In this document: positions 1-8,933 of the stretch, piece by piece | Numbering within the stretch: the first letter of the stretch is position 1 | Layout of the letters: each line of letters begins with the position of its first letter | Source of the DNA: Bacteroidaceae bacterium | Lineage (GTDB): Bacteria > Bacteroidota > Bacteroidia > Bacteroidales > Bacteroidaceae | Reading direction: 5' to 3' | Assembly: GCA_017416805.1 (NCBI GenBank) | Contig: JAFQBB010000014.1 | Coordinates: forward strand, 1 to 35,275 | Length of the DNA stretch: 35,275 nt | Notes under the pieces: model-generated | What the model was told of the DNA's origin: nothing | Databases searched by the model: none | Seen by the model: only the letters and a program-made list of their open reading frames with translations | Program-made: the position numbers and the translations under genes

Positions 1-305
1 CCGGCGTTGATGTCCTTGTTGATTTGTGTTGTGAATTGCTTTCAAATTAGTATCTTTGCGCCAAGAAAGACAACCGGCCGGCGTTGATGTCCTTGTTGAT
101 TTGTGTTGTGAATTGCTTTCAAATTAGTATCTTTGCGCCAAGAAAGACAACAAGAAGCCCGCAAGGCAAAGAAAGCCGCGAGTTGTGAATTGCTTTCAAA
201 TTAGTATCTTTGCGCCAAGAAAGACAACACGGATTTTTGTACAACGAAGAGTCCGGCGGTTGTGAATTGCTTTCAAATTAGTATCTTTGCGCCAAGAAAG
301 ACAAC
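1..305 (+). CRISPR. Type II-C CRISPR array (distal end; continues left of window)
   Basis: Four identical 47-bp repeats lie at 28-74, 105-151, 182-228 and 259-305. Each begins GTTGTGAATTGC and ends AAGAAAGACAAC. They are separated by three 30-bp spacers (75-104, 152-181, 229-258), and bases 1-27 are the end of a further spacer. Repeats of 47 bp with 30-bp spacers are usual for Bacteroidetes type II-C loci. The first half of the repeat is complementary to the anti-repeat of the tracrRNA at 7378, which fixes the crRNA sense as +. Each repeat carries a Bacteroidetes promoter match (TTG at repeat bases 2-4, 19 bases, TATCTTTG at 24-31). The partial spacer at 1-27 is identical to the last 27 bases of the next spacer, so one repeat-spacer unit is duplicated. 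The repeat at 259-305 has no spacer after it, so this is the trailer end, 108 bp from cas2, which is convergent. Confidence 0.97.
29..58 (+). promoter_or_regulatory. Promoter embedded in CRISPR repeat (first copy; repeated in all four)
   Basis: The repeat contains TTG (29-31), a 19-base gap and TATCTTTG (51-58), which fits the Bacteroidetes primary-sigma consensus TTTG-N19-21-TAnnTTTG. Initiation about 7 bases past the -7 box would fall near repeat base 38-40, 8-10 bases before the spacer. The same arrangement recurs at 106-135, 183-212 and 260-289. Repeat-borne promoters are known in Neisseria type II-C arrays. Their activity here is inferred from sequence only. Confidence 0.55.
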
Positions 306-1707: not shown

Positions 1708-2706
1708 CTATCTTTTCAGTTTCTTCTGTTCCCGTTCAAAATTCTCAATGAAGTGCAATTCTACAGGTGAAAGTTGGTATTGCGTACGTTCTTTGAAACG
1801 ATCATATTCAGTATCCGCTTTCAACTTGGCCACCTCTGCAGAAATGGTGCCGGCATGAGTCAGAAGTTCCTTTCCCGACAGTTTCAAGAAATCATCCAAC
1901 TTCTGAATCCAATCTTTCATATACATAGGTGTATGGCTCTTCGCCTGAAGTTCCGCAAAATCAAGATATAAGTTGACAATACGGTTCAACGTGTCCAACT
2001 CATCTTCGTTCAAATAGTTCTTGGCATATTCTGCATCCTGTCGTTTAGGCAAAGCTCCCGTCCATGTAGTCAGTCCCATGAAGTCCTTATCTGCATCGGC
2101 TCGATTGTATATAATCTCAGCCGCCGTATGCCCATGTACGGAATAGTGCATCTTGTTCTGTACGGTAGCAAAAAATTGTCGGGTTGTTTCTGTTCTCGGG
2201 TCGTAGTCGATACTCAATGCATAAATTTCCAATATCTTCCGGTAAAACACCTTCTCCGATGAGCGGATGTCACGAATGCGTGCAAGCAGTTCGTCAAAGT
2301 AATTGCCTTTTCCTGCATTCTTCAACAGCTCATCATTCAGTGCAAAACCCTTGACAAGATATTCCCTCAACACCTGTGTAGCCCATATACGGAACTGTAC
2401 ACCCCGATAGGAATTGACCCTATAACCAATGCTAATAATCATGTCAAGGTTGTAATAGTTAACCTGATATATTTTTCCATCAGAAGCAGTTGTTGCAAAA
2501 AATGCAACAACTGAAGTTTCCTGTAATTCACCACTTTCCAATACATTTTTTATATGTCTGGATATGGTAGATTTATTGCGCTGAAACAATTCCGCCATTT
2601 GGTCAATGGTCAACCAAACGGTTTCATTGGCAAGCGTGACTTCTATCTTGCTTTCCCCATCAACGGTTTGATAGAGGATTATTTGTCCTTTATTAGAGTA
2701 GTCCAT
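1708..2706 (-). CDS. RhuM-family protein embedded in the cas operon
   Basis: This 332-residue protein matches the RhuM family (named from a Salmonella pathogenicity-island gene; often found on mobile elements; molecular role poorly known). An N-terminal winged-helix-like segment reads WLTIDQMAELFQRNKSTISRHI (about residues 31-52). The family core follows: the YYNLDMIISIGYRVNS and FRIWATQVLREYLVKGF stretches, then a C-terminal domain with HGHTAAEIIYNRADADKDFMGLTTW. The length is full for the family and no damage is seen. It starts 17 bases after cas9 and ends 5 bases before cas1, so it is almost surely cotranscribed with both. The HTH suggests DNA binding. Any link to CRISPR control or adaptation is inference. 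No Fic/Doc partner gene adjoins it. Confidence 0.88.
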   Translation of the reverse strand: MDYSNKGQIILYQTVDGESKIEVTLANETVWLTIDQMAELFQRNKSTISRHIKNVLESGELQETSVVAFFATTASDGKIYQVNYYNLDMIISIGYRVNSYRGVQFRIWATQVLREYLVKGFALNDELLKNAGKGNYFDELLARIRDIRSSEKVFYRKILEIYALSIDYDPRTETTRQFFATVQNKMHYSVHGHTAAEIIYNRADADKDFMGLTTWTGALPKRQDAEYAKNYLNEDELDTLNRIVNLYLDFAELQAKSHTPMYMKDWIQKLDDFLKLSGKELLTHAGTISAEVAKLKADTEYDRFKERTQYQLSPVELHFIENFEREQKKLKR

Positions 2707-2723
2707 ATTTCCTTATCAATATC

Positions 2724-5700
2724 CTATTTGGTTATATTACCTAATCTATCAACTTTAATTGGAATACAGACTTCTTTTATCATTTCATTCGTCCAAGCTC
2801 TTTGAGCTTTATTATTACTTCCCAACTCTTTTGTTTCAATTATAGGACTTGCAACAAAACAAGGAATAAAATGAGCTTCGTTTCCAGTACAACTTACAAA
2901 TTTATAAATTCTTGAACAATTTAACTTACCTCCTATATGAATATCCTTTTCACCCACTGTCGGCACATAAACCAAATCATTAGGAGACAAAACAAACTTT
3001 GGCTCATTACCATTCTCATCAGTCGGTACAGGCGATAGACCCTGTTTTAATCTTTCTATAACAACATTTAAAGGAATAGTTGCATAAGTTCTTTTCTTTA
3101 CAGTCTTACCTGATTCTACATTCAACTTTTCTGTTTCATATATAGCAAAATAAAGATTAGTACCTTTATCTGCTTCTACAAACTTGAATAACTTATTACC
3201 CTTTTGTCCAACAGCAAACTTATCCCCCTTCTCATATTTGCGAACTTTATAGATTGGATGATGATATTTCCCTTTATTCAAACGAACAATGTTCCGATTC
3301 ATTTCATCTATTCCATCTAATGAATAAGCAATATTAGGATCATTCCCCTTCTCCTCCAAATGATGTAATAAAATTGTCTGAATACCAGTATCTGTTATTT
3401 TATTTTTAATAATAGATACAGCTTTTTCATAATCATTGGCATCACCAAGAATTTCTATTAGCGACTTTCTCGCTGCAAAGAATCTATCTTTCGTTTCCTT
3501 TGTGAAGTAATACACCTTAATTTTAGCCAAATCTATATCTTGCCATACATCATGATGTTCTTCAAAGTACTTCTTTATTCTCTTTTCATCATATCCTTGT
3601 TTCAATAAAGACAATAGTTTTTCCTTAAATTCCTTTTCTACAATTCTTGAAGGCTTCTTAATTGCTTCATTTAACTTAATTGATTTAATCTTACGCAAAT
3701 TCACTTCTCCATATACAGTGTCTATATGCATAGACTTACGAATAGCCCAATTAGAACGTACTTGTTTAACAAGTCTCTTCTTACCATCCTCAAAACGAAC
3801 ATACATATTGGTTGCCTTATTGATGACACGTAAATTCTGTTTAAAGCTAACCACGATATTATTCAACACTTGATATACATCTTGCGTAAACGTATTCCAA
3901 GGTTTCTTTATCATCCATTTATAATTACCCTTATCATCTGTCTTAACCTTGTCGCACAACAATATCTGCAAATCATAACGTGATATTTTAGATTTACTAC
4001 TTGCCGATTCATTATTCAAATAATTGACAATGTTTCTGTTAGCACAAGCAATAATAATAGCGTCCATAGCGTGATGACGATGGTCGATGCGTTTTTTATT
4101 AAATCCCTTTTGAAGTTCCAACGGCATAGAAGGTACTTCGTAACCATTTGTAGTTTTTGTTGTAAACTGATTAGTTCCCGTCATTTCATTGAGACGCAAG
4201 AAACGAGGCAAGATGATTTTATTCCAAACATCATTGATACCCCAATCTTTCTTCAATCTGTCAGTCACACCACCTGTACATACAATGACATTCTTGGATA
4301 TTGCTTCTTCTTCACCTTCTTCACGTACAATATTTGAAAGTAATCCTTTAATAACTTTACTGATATATCGACTATCATTCAATTGTCTTGCAATAAATTC
4401 ATCGGGGATGGAATCCATCATTAATTTGCGCATCTTACCACGATTGCGCACATAATGGTCTTTCACGAATTGTTCATACTCCCCTTCTGTAAAGATTGTT
4501 ACAACCTTTCCAAAAGACAATTCAATCTTTTCACCATGATGTTTTTTGATAAACTCAAATCCCAAAAGGTTGTTTTTCAATTTGTTTACTTCCGATTCAC
4601 AAATAACCTTGTTCGAGAATGAATCATCGATATAACGGGATTGAGGAATCACGTGCTCTATCTCATACGCAGAAGTGAACAATTTGGCCAATGGGATTGG
4701 TTGGCCGGTATAAGGTGAACAATACTTTTGTTCCAGCCACAACTTATAACGAAGAACCTCGCTTCTTGTCGGACGTTTCTTGACATCACTTTCCTTGAAC
4801 TTCTTCAATATATCTTCGATTTCATTCTTTTCCTTTTCATCTCTATATTTATAATCAGATGAATTATCTTTTTCATAAACATCTTCTCTATCCAACACAC
4901 CTTCCTCGTAAATACGCAAAATATCCTGCTGACTTGGTGAATAAGGACGGACATTTTCTATCTCAAATTCAGGATTAGCAAATTCCATCAACAACGCTTT
5001 AATACGTAAGTTCGTATTTTCATTATTAGTGATTTTTTCAGTATCCTTACGACGCTGTTCTGCCGTTTGTTTCATGTTTCGTCCAAGTTCTACGTGTATT
5101 TCATCAATTTTCTCATATTTTTCCCATATATCACGTACCGTCCGAAGAGTCTCTGTTATCACTTGTTCAACAATAGGATTACGCAAGGAATGCTGTTTGA
5201 ATGATTTCAAATATTTCTGCAAATCATCATGAGTCTTCCATCTTGTTATTTCCTTTGCCTCTGAATGTCGGTTATAGACAACATAGCAAGCCAACCAAGG
5301 AGAAAGTCCTCTAAACGATGACACATCTGTAAGGTTCATTGCCTTTTCCCTTACTCTGTTCTTGATGCTTTCATCATATTCTCCAGAAATGATTTTATCT
5401 ATTCTTCCACGAGTAAGCTCATCTATGTTACTTTCTGACCAATATTTTCCCATTCTCATTAAGAGTAATAATTTCTTGATTGCTTTGGCAGAATAAGCAC
5501 CATATTCTTTCTTGAATGGTGGGAACTTCTGGAAAACATCAACAAAACAATCATTCAAGCTATACTTATCGGCAAACTTACGTAAAGCCTTTATCAATTC
5601 TTGTTTGTCATCAACCGAATATAATAAATGCCACATTCTCTCTTCCAATTCTTTATTCAAAAAATCGGGAGATATACCGGCCTTGGATAAATAAGACAAG

Positions 5701-7286
5701 AGTTGGGCACGTGTTTCATTACAAGGATAAAGCTTGTCTTCCACATAATTCCAACGATAGTTTCCCACATTCTTTTTTAATCCGAATGAAGGATATTTCA
5801 AGAAATTCTTTTGATCGATAGTCTTCCTGTCATTTAACCAATCGAACAATGCCACATAATCTTCTTCTGACTTCAAGAAATCTGATGTAACATCAATATC
5901 CTTTGCCAAATCTTTCTTATAGATATGCAAATTGCTCAAGAATTGCCAAAGGCGGAACTCTTGATACAACGGATGCGACTTGGCGATACACTTCAATCCA
6001 TATTTCTTTTCTTCGCCTGTTTCCTTATCTTTTACTATATATTCCTCATATGGACAATTAGATATCAAAGATTTCTTGGTTTTCAACGGACGCTGATAGA
6101 ATAAAATGTCATCCACAAACAAATAAGTAAAATCACGATTAGCGATGTTTGTGCGATATGCCTCATTACTTGGATATAATTCTTCAATACAGGCTTGGTA
6201 TAAATCCTTATTTTGAAGTTCAGGATGGAATACCTTTTGCTTGTTCAGTATTTGAATCAATTCATCCTTATAAAATTTTCTTTCGATAGTACGTACCAAT
6301 TTGCCACGTACTTTTTGATTTGGATTTTGGAGAATGGAGTCATAGATGTATGTACCTACGGTTTTACCTGTATCCAATATAGTTTTTTCTGTTTTAATTC
6401 TAATTTTATCGTATAATTTATTCTTCTCTTTTTCAGTCATCCTTTCAATTTCATCAATAGAAGGCAAAATCGATAAACTTATTTTTTGTTCTCCATTTTT
6501 TAACGTTGTTTTCTTTACAATAAAATCTTTAGTCTCAGATTTCCACGAATAAATATCATTATAGAATGCAGCTTTATAAATCCAACCGTTTTCTAAAGAT
6601 ACTTCAAACCAATATTTATTTCCTTTTTTGTCTTTTTCGCCTTTGACAACATCAACAACTTTTAAACTTTCTATTGTAAAATTATTATCCTTTTCAATTT
6701 CCACTTCTGATAATTGATAATAACCACGTTTCTGATTGAAATTCAACAAAACCCAAGCCAATTCTTCCTTTGAAATCTTTTGAGTTAAAGCCTTCTTACG
6801 GAGATAATAGATTGTCCAATCATACGGAACTTTCTTGCCCACAAGTTCCGAATGAGTCAATCTGAAGTCTTCTAGCATCTCATTGAACGAATCAATAAAC
6901 AAGAATTCATATTTACCCATTTCATTCTTGCGCCAAGCCAACTTCGGTTCTTCACCTTCCTTGATTTGACCATAACGATTTAAGGTCTTTGAATAATGAG
7001 AAGGCAAGAACTCCAAAATATCAAGTACCCGATGTAATCGTTCTCTACGCAACAAACATCTTTCAAGCAAATGACGCATACCTCGCAATCTAGTACGTTC
7101 TGCAGTTTGGGAAATAGAATTTCCTTTATCAAAATCACCTAATACAGTTGCATCCATAGGAATAATTCTACTTCCTGCTGCATCAATTTTTACTAATTGA
7201 AGATTTCCTTCGTCATCAATTTCAGCGACAATTACCGCCCAACCAATACTATTTGTTCCTAAATCAAGGCCTAAAATTCGTTTCAT
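2724..7286 (-). CDS. cas9: Cas9 endonuclease, type II-C
   Basis: This 1520-residue crRNA/tracrRNA-guided nuclease is complete in sequence. RuvC-I is MKRILGLDLGTNSIGWAV with catalytic Asp8. RuvC-II is EIHVELGRNM with Glu733. The HNH motif is YEIEHVIPQSRYIDDSFSNK with catalytic His878 and the distal Asn of SNK; Glu877 precedes His where SpCas9 has Asp. RuvC-III is RHHAMDA with His1072 and Asp1075. All catalytic residues are present. An arginine-rich bridge helix (TRLRGMRHLLERCLLRRERLH) follows RuvC-I. It is long for subtype II-C (many are about 1000-1450 residues). It starts the rhuM-cas1-cas2 operon and diverges from the tracrRNA gene. Its DNA is visibly more AT-rich than that of rhuM or cas1, so the operon is a mosaic in composition. 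Confidence 0.97.
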   Translation of the reverse strand: MKRILGLDLGTNSIGWAVIVAEIDDEGNLQLVKIDAAGSRIIPMDATVLGDFDKGNSISQTAERTRLRGMRHLLERCLLRRERLHRVLDILEFLPSHYSKTLNRYGQIKEGEEPKLAWRKNEMGKYEFLFIDSFNEMLEDFRLTHSELVGKKVPYDWTIYYLRKKALTQKISKEELAWVLLNFNQKRGYYQLSEVEIEKDNNFTIESLKVVDVVKGEKDKKGNKYWFEVSLENGWIYKAAFYNDIYSWKSETKDFIVKKTTLKNGEQKISLSILPSIDEIERMTEKEKNKLYDKIRIKTEKTILDTGKTVGTYIYDSILQNPNQKVRGKLVRTIERKFYKDELIQILNKQKVFHPELQNKDLYQACIEELYPSNEAYRTNIANRDFTYLFVDDILFYQRPLKTKKSLISNCPYEEYIVKDKETGEEKKYGLKCIAKSHPLYQEFRLWQFLSNLHIYKKDLAKDIDVTSDFLKSEEDYVALFDWLNDRKTIDQKNFLKYPSFGLKKNVGNYRWNYVEDKLYPCNETRAQLLSYLSKAGISPDFLNKELEERMWHLLYSVDDKQELIKALRKFADKYSLNDCFVDVFQKFPPFKKEYGAYSAKAIKKLLLLMRMGKYWSESNIDELTRGRIDKIISGEYDESIKNRVREKAMNLTDVSSFRGLSPWLACYVVYNRHSEAKEITRWKTHDDLQKYLKSFKQHSLRNPIVEQVITETLRTVRDIWEKYEKIDEIHVELGRNMKQTAEQRRKDTEKITNNENTNLRIKALLMEFANPEFEIENVRPYSPSQQDILRIYEEGVLDREDVYEKDNSSDYKYRDEKEKNEIEDILKKFKESDVKKRPTRSEVLRYKLWLEQKYCSPYTGQPIPLAKLFTSAYEIEHVIPQSRYIDDSFSNKVICESEVNKLKNNLLGFEFIKKHHGEKIELSFGKVVTIFTEGEYEQFVKDHYVRNRGKMRKLMMDSIPDEFIARQLNDSRYISKVIKGLLSNIVREEGEEEAISKNVIVCTGGVTDRLKKDWGINDVWNKIILPRFLRLNEMTGTNQFTTKTTNGYEVPSMPLELQKGFNKKRIDHRHHAMDAIIIACANRNIVNYLNNESASSKSKISRYDLQILLCDKVKTDDKGNYKWMIKKPWNTFTQDVYQVLNNIVVSFKQNLRVINKATNMYVRFEDGKKRLVKQVRSNWAIRKSMHIDTVYGEVNLRKIKSIKLNEAIKKPSRIVEKEFKEKLLSLLKQGYDEKRIKKYFEEHHDVWQDIDLAKIKVYYFTKETKDRFFAARKSLIEILGDANDYEKAVSIIKNKITDTGIQTILLHHLEEKGNDPNIAYSLDGIDEMNRNIVRLNKGKYHHPIYKVRKYEKGDKFAVGQKGNKLFKFVEADKGTNLYFAIYETEKLNVESGKTVKKRTYATIPLNVVIERLKQGLSPVPTDENGNEPKFVLSPNDLVYVPTVGEKDIHIGGKLNCSRIYKFVSCTGNEAHFIPCFVASPIIETKELGSNNKAQRAWTNEMIKEVCIPIKVDRLGNITK

Positions 7287-7341: not shown

Positions 7342-7372
7342 TTGCATTGTATAAAAAAAGTGTATATATTTG
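7342..7372 (+). promoter_or_regulatory. tracrRNA promoter
   Basis: TTG at 7342-7344, a 20-base gap and TATATTTG at 7365-7372 match the Bacteroidetes promoter consensus closely. Initiation about 7 bases further on would be near 7378-7380, exactly where the anti-repeat begins. That agreement supports both calls. Confidence 0.75.
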
Positions 7373-7377
7373 CCACA

Positions 7378-7464
7378 TAATTTGAAGCAATTCACAATAA
7401 GGATTATTCCGTTGTGAAAACATCAGGTTCTGATCCCTCGTCCTTTAACGGGGGATTTTTCTTT
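7378..7464 (+). ncRNA. tracrRNA
   Basis: Bases 7378-7398 (TAATTTGAAGCAATTCACAAT) are complementary to the first half of the CRISPR repeat with one missing A (a one-base bulge). The next part, AAGGATTATTCCGTTGTG, is a nexus-like hairpin with the AAGG...CCGTT pattern seen in other tracrRNAs. The RNA ends in an intrinsic terminator at 7433-7460. The predicted length is about 85 nt. The gene diverges from cas9 and overlaps, antisense, the last 20 codons of the BRO-N gene at 7404-7841. Confidence 0.88.
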
Positions 7465-7841
7465 CCCTCTATCTCCCTCTCCTCCTCAAAGAAACGTTCG
7501 GATGCCACCTGTGCCATCCACCGTTTGAATGGTTCAGCCTTAGGTGAAGGAATGGACTGGATAAGACGGAAAAGCTGTTCCTGGTCGGCAACATCTGTCA
7601 AGCGCATCTTGCCATCAGCAGCTTTCATTTTGAAAGCGTGACAATTTGTCACGGTTTGATTTCCCTCCTCTATAAGACGTTGTTTTAGTTTGCGCCAATA
7701 TGCTTGAGGGTTGACGCTGTCTGTTAATACAGCCACTACATCAATGATGGAGAAATACCATTTCTCCTGTTCATCGTCCCACACAGTGCGGACTTTCTTC
7801 TCTTCAAATATCTTGATGGATTCTTTCTTTGTCATAACCAA
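7404..7841 (-). CDS. Truncated BRO-N / antirepressor-like protein
   Basis: The first ~115 residues are a clear BRO-N (phage antirepressor-type) domain: IKIFEEKKVRTVWDDEQEKW, FSIIDVVAVLTDS, YWRKLKQRL, KMRLTDVADQEQLFRLIQSIPS and EPFKRWMAQVASER. Relatives I know of this type continue for well over 100 more residues. Here the protein ends at 145 residues with an unrelated, charged tail (KKNPPLKDEGSEPDVFTTE) whose codons are the antisense of the tracrRNA. The gene looks cut at the tracrRNA boundary, as if the cas9-tracrRNA DNA landed in it. Start could be Met1 or Met3. It lies 30 bases after the ImmA-type gene and reads toward cas9. The remnant may be non-functional or a domain-only regulator. Confidence 0.8.
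   Translation of the reverse strand: MVMTKKESIKIFEEKKVRTVWDDEQEKWYFSIIDVVAVLTDSVNPQAYWRKLKQRLIEEGNQTVTNCHAFKMKAADGKMRLTDVADQEQLFRLIQSIPSPKAEPFKRWMAQVASERFFEEEREIEGKKNPPLKDEGSEPDVFTTE
7433..7464 (+). terminator. tracrRNA intrinsic terminator
   Basis: An 8-bp stem (ATCCCTCG pairing with CGGGGGAT, one G-U) encloses an 8-base loop and is followed by TTTTTCTTT. On the other strand no T tract follows, so it should not stop transcription running toward cas9. Confidence 0.8.
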
Positions 7842-7871: not shown

Positions 7872-8933
7872 TTATAACACTTTCACCCTTTCTGAATCTG
7901 AATCATACACTTCTCCCTCTCCCAAATTCTGTATTTCACCTTCCGTAATGACTTGCTCGGCCAAAGCACGTTGCAACAGTCGGGCATAACGGTCGGTATG
8001 CTCCATGATAGGGTAAGCGCCCCACCCCTCTTCCATGGGATTAGCATGAATGTGGGTGTCGTAGATATGATTGTAGTAAGTATCTGTAATGATACCCAAA
8101 TCTTTTGCTCGGTGGACTATAGCTGCTATGGAAATGCCGTAACGGCAACGGAGGCTGACAAGTTCGCCCAGGGTGAATGCAGTGCGGTGATGCCCCAACT
8201 CTTCTTGAAAAACTGATGCAGGACAGAGGAATGCGCCTGCAAAACGGTGACAAAGACGCTCACGCTCTTTGTCTGTAACTGACTTATCGAAATTCAGTAA
8301 CAGATGGGCCAATTCGTGAAGGGCAGTAAAACGTTTCCGCTCGGAAGTGTGATTATTAGATAAGTTGACCACAATCAGTGGAATGGTCTTATTGACAAAG
8401 GTAGAGAAACCCAATGCACAATCGGTTCCAGCCTCAAACTCGATAATTTTAATACCTACACTTTCCATCATTTCATATACGGAAAGTATAGGATAATTGC
8501 CTGCTCCCCATTTGATCCGCAATTGTCGGGCTGCAATTTCCACATCGTCCATCGTGGAGATTTTTCGATTCTTCAACGGATTTTTAAATATGAAATCCTT
8601 AGCCAAAAGGTCTTCAAGATGAAGATATCGCTCCATTTTGTCCTGTGCAACGAGTATCATCTGCCTTTCGGCACGGACTGGTATGTGTTCTCCATTGCGG
8701 CGGAAACTTATCTGTTCAATCTGTATCCCCTGACGAAAGAAGTAATCTGTAGGCAAATTCAGTGATTTGGCTATGGCATCCAAAACCTGGCTACTGGGCA
8801 TCATTTGCCCGTTCTCGTATTTGGAAATTGCTTGTTTGCTGACAACACCTTGTATGGAATGGGATAATTCTTCCATAGACAGGCCTTTCATCAGTCGGGC
8901 ATTCTTCAACCGATTGCAAAATAGGTTTTTCAT
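7872..8933 (-). CDS. XRE-type HTH + ImmA/IrrE metallopeptidase
   Basis: Residues 1-70 form an XRE helix-turn-helix (LKNARLMKGLSMEELSHSI, KQAISKYENG, IAKSLNLPTDYFF). Residues ~130-290 form an ImmA/IrrE-type zinc peptidase with HELAH at 206-210 and FAGAFLCP further on. In ICEBs1, ImmA cleaves the ImmR repressor, and IrrE controls DNA-damage responses in Deinococcus. Proteins joining both domains are commonly stress- or element-linked regulators. The 353-residue length is normal for the fused form. The gene is upstream of the BRO-N gene on the same strand. Target and signal are unknown. Confidence 0.9.
   Translation of the reverse strand: MKNLFCNRLKNARLMKGLSMEELSHSIQGVVSKQAISKYENGQMMPSSQVLDAIAKSLNLPTDYFFRQGIQIEQISFRRNGEHIPVRAERQMILVAQDKMERYLHLEDLLAKDFIFKNPLKNRKISTMDDVEIAARQLRIKWGAGNYPILSVYEMMESVGIKIIEFEAGTDCALGFSTFVNKTIPLIVVNLSNNHTSERKRFTALHELAHLLLNFDKSVTDKERERLCHRFAGAFLCPASVFQEELGHHRTAFTLGELVSLRCRYGISIAAIVHRAKDLGIITDTYYNHIYDTHIHANPMEEGWGAYPIMEHTDRYARLLQRALAEQVITEGEIQNLGEGEVYDSDSERVKVL

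What the first reader, a model, noticed from the sequence alone, without database searches (positions are those of the whole stretch)
1708..2706. A rhuM-family gene built into a type II-C cas operon
An intact 332-codon RhuM-type gene lies between cas9 and cas1 with gaps of 17 and 5 bases, so it must be cotranscribed, and its 3' end holds the ribosome entry region of cas1. RhuM proteins have an HTH-like N-terminus and are common on mobile elements, with no settled function. They are not a standard part of subtype II-C operons as I know them. It may be a CRISPR regulator, an adaptation helper, or an addiction or anti-phage partner. A simple neutral insertion would be expected to leave wider or damaged joints.
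Basis: partly seen in the sequence, partly recalled or inferred. Interest (0 to 1): 0.72.

Follow-up and report, generated by a model that had tools for sequence, protein, structure and literature searches.

The report
RhuM gene inside a CRISPR operon
In several gut bacteria a gene for a probable DNA-binding protein sits between the cutting gene and the memory-making genes of a CRISPR immune system; it is kept intact in some lineages and lost in others, and its predicted shape hints that it may handle broken DNA.

The parts
1..305 (+). CRISPR array (window edge): four 47-bp repeats (28-74, 105-151, 182-228, 259-305)
   Evidence: RF01362
414..746 (-). cas2, 110 aa
   Evidence: PF09827, TIGR01573
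764..1702 (-). cas1, 312 aa
   Evidence: PF01867, TIGR03639
1708..2706 (-). rhuM, 332 aa: predicted Bro-N-like N-terminal part plus helical C-terminal part
   Evidence: PF13310 E 1.4e-111; PADLOC PDC-S05 E 6.9e-155; model and fold matches
2724..7286 (-). cas9, 1520 aa
   Evidence: RuvC_III, HNH_4, bridge helix; TIGR01865
7375..7460 (+). probable tracrRNA (limits approximate): anti-repeat about 7380-7400, terminator hairpin 7432-7457, Bacteroidota -7 box 7365-7373 just upstream
   Evidence: complementarity to the repeat read by eye from the sequence; block 7460-7365 shared with L039
7404..7841 (-). Bro-N ORF upstream of cas9, shorter than the slot Bro-N proteins; its 3' end overlaps the probable tracrRNA on the other strand
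   Evidence: PF02498; alignment with slot Bro-N proteins
7872..8933 (-). XRE + ImmA/IrrE-type peptidase gene upstream of the Bro-N ORF
   Evidence: HTH_3, Peptidase_M78

Best explanation
rhuM is a portable accessory gene of DNA-cutting immune operons. Its product is a DNA-binding protein: a Bro-N-like DNA-binding domain joined to a helical domain, in an arrangement like that of DdrC of Deinococcus. Shown here: the gene, its place, its recurrence, selection on intact copies, decay elsewhere, block inheritance with cas1-cas2, neighbourhood with restriction-modification genes, and fold similarity (clear for the alternative occupant, moderate for RhuM). Inferred: made from the cas9 transcript, it binds the breaks, nicks or single strands that Cas9 (or a restriction enzyme) leaves, and so affects what happens to the cut DNA: end protection or capture, including supply of ends to Cas1-Cas2, or limiting damage from self-cutting. 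It helps but is not needed for the core system.
Confidence: 0.4

Rival explanations
1. Hitchhiker: rhuM and Bro-N genes are mobile genes that settle in long, well-expressed defence operons because the operon carries them; they have no CRISPR function, and selection keeps a function of their own until they decay.
For: Occupancy is patchy and decays in place: L050 and L175 keep only end pieces of rhuM, L047 and L174 are broken, Bro-N is split in L041 and L051. L037, whose Cas1 is almost identical (100% after rounding), has no rhuM. RhuM relatives are on viral contigs (107 of 129 candidate stretches confirmed), in 51 phage records and 126 plasmid records.
Against: Bias towards restriction-modification genes, repeated use of the same place, purifying selection on intact copies, and two families without sequence likeness but with like predicted folds in one place.
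Confidence: 0.25
2. Regulator: RhuM is a Bro-N-type transcription factor or antirepressor that controls the cas operon or senses phage infection.
For: HTH-like N-terminus and fold matches to phage Bro-N, repressor-domain and Ant-like proteins; an XRE-ImmA gene and a Bro-N ORF lie just upstream of cas9.
Against: A large, strongly conserved C-terminal part is more than a small regulator needs; close relatives sit beside many unlike defence genes; the upstream XRE-ImmA type of gene was seen in only 3 other loci scanned, none with rhuM before cas1 (upstream flanks were short in many loci).
Confidence: 0.2
3. Back-up toxin: RhuM harms the cell when the DNA-cutting system fails or is inhibited, as proposed for RhuM beside PrrC and R-M genes.
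For: Proposal in PMC3710099 (passages read), from RhuM-DOC fusions and R-M neighbourhoods; L131 has RhuM next to a Fic-domain gene.
Against: PF13310 is the only Pfam match of this protein, with no Fic/DOC or nuclease domain; no second small gene stands with it between cas9 and cas1 in the window; frequent decay of rhuM while cas genes stay is not what an addictive toxin predicts.
Confidence: 0.13

Closest known systems
RhuM-domain ORFs between cas1 and cas9 in Bacteroides fragilis II-C loci (PMC5704556, 2017)
   Same: Same protein family in the same operon interval; repeats are also 47 bp
   Different: There two ORFs per locus, called hypothetical; the passages read give no spread to other genera, selection, block inheritance, second family or fold. 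I read no B. fragilis locus myself
RhuM in restriction-modification operons; PADLOC candidate PDC-S05
   Same: Same protein family, at about 75-82% identity for the closest ones; next to type I, II, IIG and III-like systems
   Different: Here the partner is Cas9-Cas1-Cas2
DdrC of Deinococcus radiodurans
   Same: Best fold match of both slot occupants; two-part architecture
   Different: No sequence match for RhuM; DdrC is under IrrE/DdrO control and belongs to a DNA-damage response (PMC5436757)
Csn2 of type II-A (recalled)
   Same: Accessory gene in a type II operon; DNA-end binder used in spacer acquisition (recalled)
   Different: No Csn2 match in the lists seen; different position in the operon; not fixed in the subtype

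Membership tests
RhuM family (PF13310) | Match above the curated cut-off over the whole domain | tested here: met
   372 bits against 33.7, profile 1-249 of 252
CRISPR-Cas subtype II-C | cas9, cas1, cas2 and no csn2 or cas4 in the operon | tested here: met
   Only cas2, cas1, rhuM and cas9 ORFs of note between array and tracr region; the subtype is called by gene content, not by a Cas9 tree, and the array runs off the window
DdrC family (for RhuM) | DdrC two-part fold | tested here: inconclusive
DdrC family (for RhuM) | Sequence homology to DdrC | tested here: inconclusive
   Profile of 46 RhuMs finds no DdrC chain up to E 10
DdrC family (for slot Bro-N proteins) | DdrC two-part fold | tested here: met
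DdrC family (for slot Bro-N proteins) | Sequence homology to DdrC | tested here: inconclusive
   Profile of 34 finds DdrC alone, E 0.007-0.017, C-terminal half; a single sequence finds nothing
DdrC family | Binds DNA breaks or single strands, protects ends | not testable with these tools
   Needs purified protein
Csn2 | Match to a Csn2 profile | tested here: not met
   No such match at E 0.001 in Pfam or NCBIfam, nor among the 25 of 38 PADLOC families listed
Fic/DOC toxins | Fic domain in the protein | tested here: not met
   PF13310 is the only Pfam match

The most novel reading that the evidence does not exclude
RhuM, and the Bro-N protein found in its place, are II-C counterparts of Csn2 or Cas4: DNA-break-binding adaptation factors that catch ends made by Cas9 or by repair and pass them to Cas1-Cas2. 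They would be inherited with cas1-cas2 rather than with cas9, and two DdrC-like families would have been recruited to one job.
Probability: 0.12. Interest if true: 0.82.

Novelty: new variant of a known kind. Interest (0 to 1): 0.56.

Why it matters
RhuM is annotated as a virulence protein and its function is not settled. Its recurrent place in a compact Cas9 operon, its block inheritance with cas1-cas2, and the DdrC-like fold of the alternative occupant give a direct test: does a DNA-break binder assist II-C adaptation or survival of DNA cutting? II-C has no Csn2 or Cas4 (recalled), so how it selects and protects prespacers is a question on which this bears.

Tried and rejected
Homology between RhuM and the slot Bro-N proteins: profile comparisons gave probability about 2% twice, so a common origin is not claimed; only like predicted folds are. 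PDB by sequence: nothing for RhuM (only a chance match at E 1) and nothing for a single Bro-N sequence. PHROGs: no match. One origin for the eight intact cas-linked RhuMs: neither shown nor rejected (3 changes; AU p 0.253); one search had counted L295 as not cas-linked before its operon was read. A promoter for rhuM alone: no better than chance. The Bacteroidota -33/-7 pattern gave 4 matches in the window, none in the cas operon. More cas-linked RhuMs outside the family: none among 28 new loci from 393 genomes of the order, though L069 and Butyricimonas L078 came.

Literature, open-licence papers only: 'RhuM, CRISPR' 83 papers, 20 listed; 'RhuM, restriction-modification' 14; 'RhuM, hsdS' 1; 'KilA-N, cas9, Bacteroid' 0; 'RhuM, phage defence' 1; 'virulence RhuM family protein' 2; 'PDC-S05' 2, seen as listing only; 'RhuM, cas9, cas1' 5, of which only PMC5704556 is on topic by its title. 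I ran no search for Bro-N genes between cas9 and cas1, so I make no claim about print there; (DdrC or BRO-N, 12 of 404 listed) was for DdrC. PMC12629846 was seen in one passage, which only lists RhuM among toxins.

Known weak points: in the Cas1 tree 9 loci without a cas9 call were counted as empty; L212 was first counted as empty and then corrected to Bro-N; the tree is the quick kind with SH-aLRT only. In L104 the contig starts inside rhuM, which also looks frame-broken, and cas9 is not in view. The Mantel test used 7 rows with values copied, L295 left out as a near-copy of L119. At 5 and 10 kb it gives 4 and 6 of 17 against 0.25 and 0.47.

Full report
What is there. The window lies in a genome of 3.16 Mb in 64 contigs (G000) whose nearest named matches are Bacteroidaceae. 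On the - strand it reads cas9 (2724-7286), rhuM (1708-2706), cas1 (764-1702), cas2 (414-746) and then a CRISPR array with 47-bp repeats at the window edge. The gaps are 17, 5 and 17 bp. RhuM matches PF13310 over nearly the whole profile (E 1.4e-111) and the PADLOC candidate model PDC-S05 (E 6.9e-155), so a defence link had been flagged by others. A probable tracrRNA lies on the + strand at about 7375-7460: anti-repeat read by eye, a -7 box at 7365-7373 and a terminator hairpin at 7432-7457.

Spread. Two sets of cas1 loci were read. The first is 80 named loci, the best 80 of 588 confirmed stretches, so chosen by similarity. The second comes from 399 genomes of the family, of which 130 have a cas1 match at E 1e-60: 104 loci from 102 genomes (100 fetched, plus the window, G137, G239 and G248); 28 genomes, mostly with weaker or partial matches, were not fetched. 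In these 104 family loci intact rhuM stands before cas1 in 5 (window, G137, G239, G248, G317), decayed rhuM in 3 (G062, G074, G188) and Bro-N in 4 (G232, G244 and G161 whole by similarity; G055 cut); 5 loci had no cas9 call. A Phocaeicola massiliensis record found through the plasmid collection has it too (L295). Pooled and made non-redundant, 160 Cas1 proteins give 13 rows with rhuM (8 intact, 4 decayed, and L104, broken at a contig end beside a Bro-N gene, cas9 not in view) and 11 with Bro-N, L104 included; 23 rows are occupied in all. The Cas1 tree needs 9 changes for rhuM, at least 4 forced by supported branches, 6 for Bro-N and 14 for occupancy.

Limits of the spread. RhuM is common: 228 of 301 family genomes have a match at E 0.001. 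Of the 29 RhuM loci with flanks from that search (L008-L036) only 3 are cas-linked, and of 28 further ones from 393 genomes of the order none is, within 1.5 kb. CRISPR is thus a minor home of RhuM.

Origins. In a tree of 64 RhuMs the eight intact cas-linked RhuMs fall in one supported clade of 28 rows together with RhuMs beside restriction-modification genes. Whether the cas-linked ones are one clade is open (AU p 0.253). Two more RhuM lineages stand in cas loci: the decayed L174 copy is closest to viral-contig RhuMs (54%), and the L104 copy is closest to L248 (66%), where RhuM-like ORFs lie upstream of cas9. So entry happened at least three times, before counting Bro-N.

Selection and decay. 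Window against G137 gives dN 0.056 and dS 1.14 for rhuM, dN 0.033 and dS 2.84 for cas1. In all rhuM pairs but two dS is saturated; pN/pS then lies between 0.12 and 0.21, against about 0.14 to 0.24 for cas1. The near-copy pair L119/L295 has omega 0.2 for rhuM and 0.07 for cas1, on few changes. Against this stand decayed copies: only the two ends of rhuM left in L050, a short scar in L175, a broken copy in L047, and a broken L174 copy with an ORF between it and cas9 that looks like a transposase by eye (not searched); Bro-N is split in L041 and L051 and reduced in L056 and L190. The gene is useful where kept and dispensable for the operon.

Unit of inheritance. L037 comes from the same genus and has an almost identical Cas1 (100% after rounding; the two rows are not fully identical). 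Window DNA and L037 are alike over the tracr region and the first 54 bp of cas9 (7460-7233) and again from 1707, the first base after the rhuM stop, through cas1, cas2 and the array. With L038 they are alike again from 2708, two bases before the rhuM start, so rhuM-cas1-cas2 is one block. In both cases no DNA likeness was found over the body of cas9; the proteins of window and L038 are 31% identical. Over 7 loci rhuM distances follow cas1 (r 0.71, p 0.0014) and not cas9 (r 0.34, p 0.15). This fits a tie to the adaptation genes but could be linkage alone.

Company elsewhere. I read 17 RhuM neighbourhoods outside CRISPR, taken from the top, and scanned 29 neighbour proteins plus one slot Bro-N protein against Pfam, 10 of the 29 also against PADLOC. 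In 9 of 17 there are restriction-modification or other defence genes: ZacB/ZacC models (L120, where rhuM itself is split), type I (L121; L124 with a GajA-like ATPase), a methylase with a ResIII protein (L127), an AlwI-like system (L128), a methylase with an HD-CE protein (L130), type IIG (L131), PDC-M26A with a PD-(D/E)XK protein (L134) and an EcoRI-type pair (L136). Of the other 8, four had one or two neighbours scanned without such a match (L122, L126, L132, L135) and four had none scanned (L123, L125, L129, L133). As a control, DNA methylases of two Pfam families lie within 7 kb of the RhuM gene in 5 of 17 genomes against 0.34 expected (P 1.6e-5). Annotated plasmids show RhuM overlapping hsdM as well.

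Mechanism. DdrC binds single- and double-stranded DNA, protects it from nucleases, condenses it, promotes circularization of linear DNA and anneals strands (PMC5436757, abstract). A protein of that kind beside Cas9 and restriction enzymes, all of which cut DNA, suggests handling of cut DNA. A LexA site upstream of a rhuM was bound in vitro by B. subtilis LexA (PMC3998124, passage), which fits a damage link. I commit to a DNA-break or single-strand binder that modulates the fate of cut DNA, with supply of ends to Cas1-Cas2 as the bolder version. None of this is shown for RhuM itself.

Prior work. PMC5704556 (passages read) says that for most of 40 II-C strains of B. [quoted passage not shown] PMC3710099 (passages) proposed RhuM as a toxin domain in R-M loci. 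So the location is not new.

Noticed in passing
window 2724-7286; L037 3667-7941; L038 2591-6967: Three MAGs of one genus share the tracr region, the first ~54 bp of cas9 and cas1-cas2 with like repeats, but carry different cas9 bodies (window against L038 31% protein identity): cas9 seems to be exchanged under a constant RNA and adaptation module.
   Followed up: partly
window 7404-7841 (-): A Bro-N ORF just upstream of cas9 is shortened, and its 3' end is read antisense through the probable tracrRNA.
   Followed up: partly
window 7872-8933; L048 2133-3128; upstream of cas9 in L253 and L257: XRE-ImmA-like genes (the other three by likeness to the window protein only) upstream of cas9 in four loci; the other three have no rhuM before cas1. 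IrrE, a peptidase of this kind, controls DdrC in Deinococcus (PMC5436757).
   Followed up: partly
L039, L040, L048, L057, upstream of cas1: Hairpins followed by T-runs, seen by eye, stand between cas9 and cas1 in unoccupied loci, suggesting that cas1 is transcribed apart from cas9 there.
   Followed up: no
L092 8929-9753: An unidentified 274-codon ORF lies between cas1 and cas2.
   Followed up: no
L086 6786-7814; L114 7454-8000: Long cas9-cas1 intervals (1029 and 547 bp) with no match to RhuM or Bro-N.
   Followed up: partly
L248 816-2347 (oriented with cas1 on +): Two RhuM-like ORFs upstream of cas9; L248 is the closest relative (66%) of the RhuM before cas1 in L104.
   Followed up: partly
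window 1-27 and 78-104: Two neighbouring spacers at the window edge are identical, a duplicated spacer.
   Followed up: no
G000 contigs C6, C51, C3, C22: The window's genome holds five further RhuM matches outside this locus: one full-length at 51% identity, others partial or divergent.
   Followed up: no
L126, L131: RhuM is followed directly by a gene with a Bro-N-like start; the one in L131 has a Fic/DOC domain, the one in L126 was not scanned.
   Followed up: no
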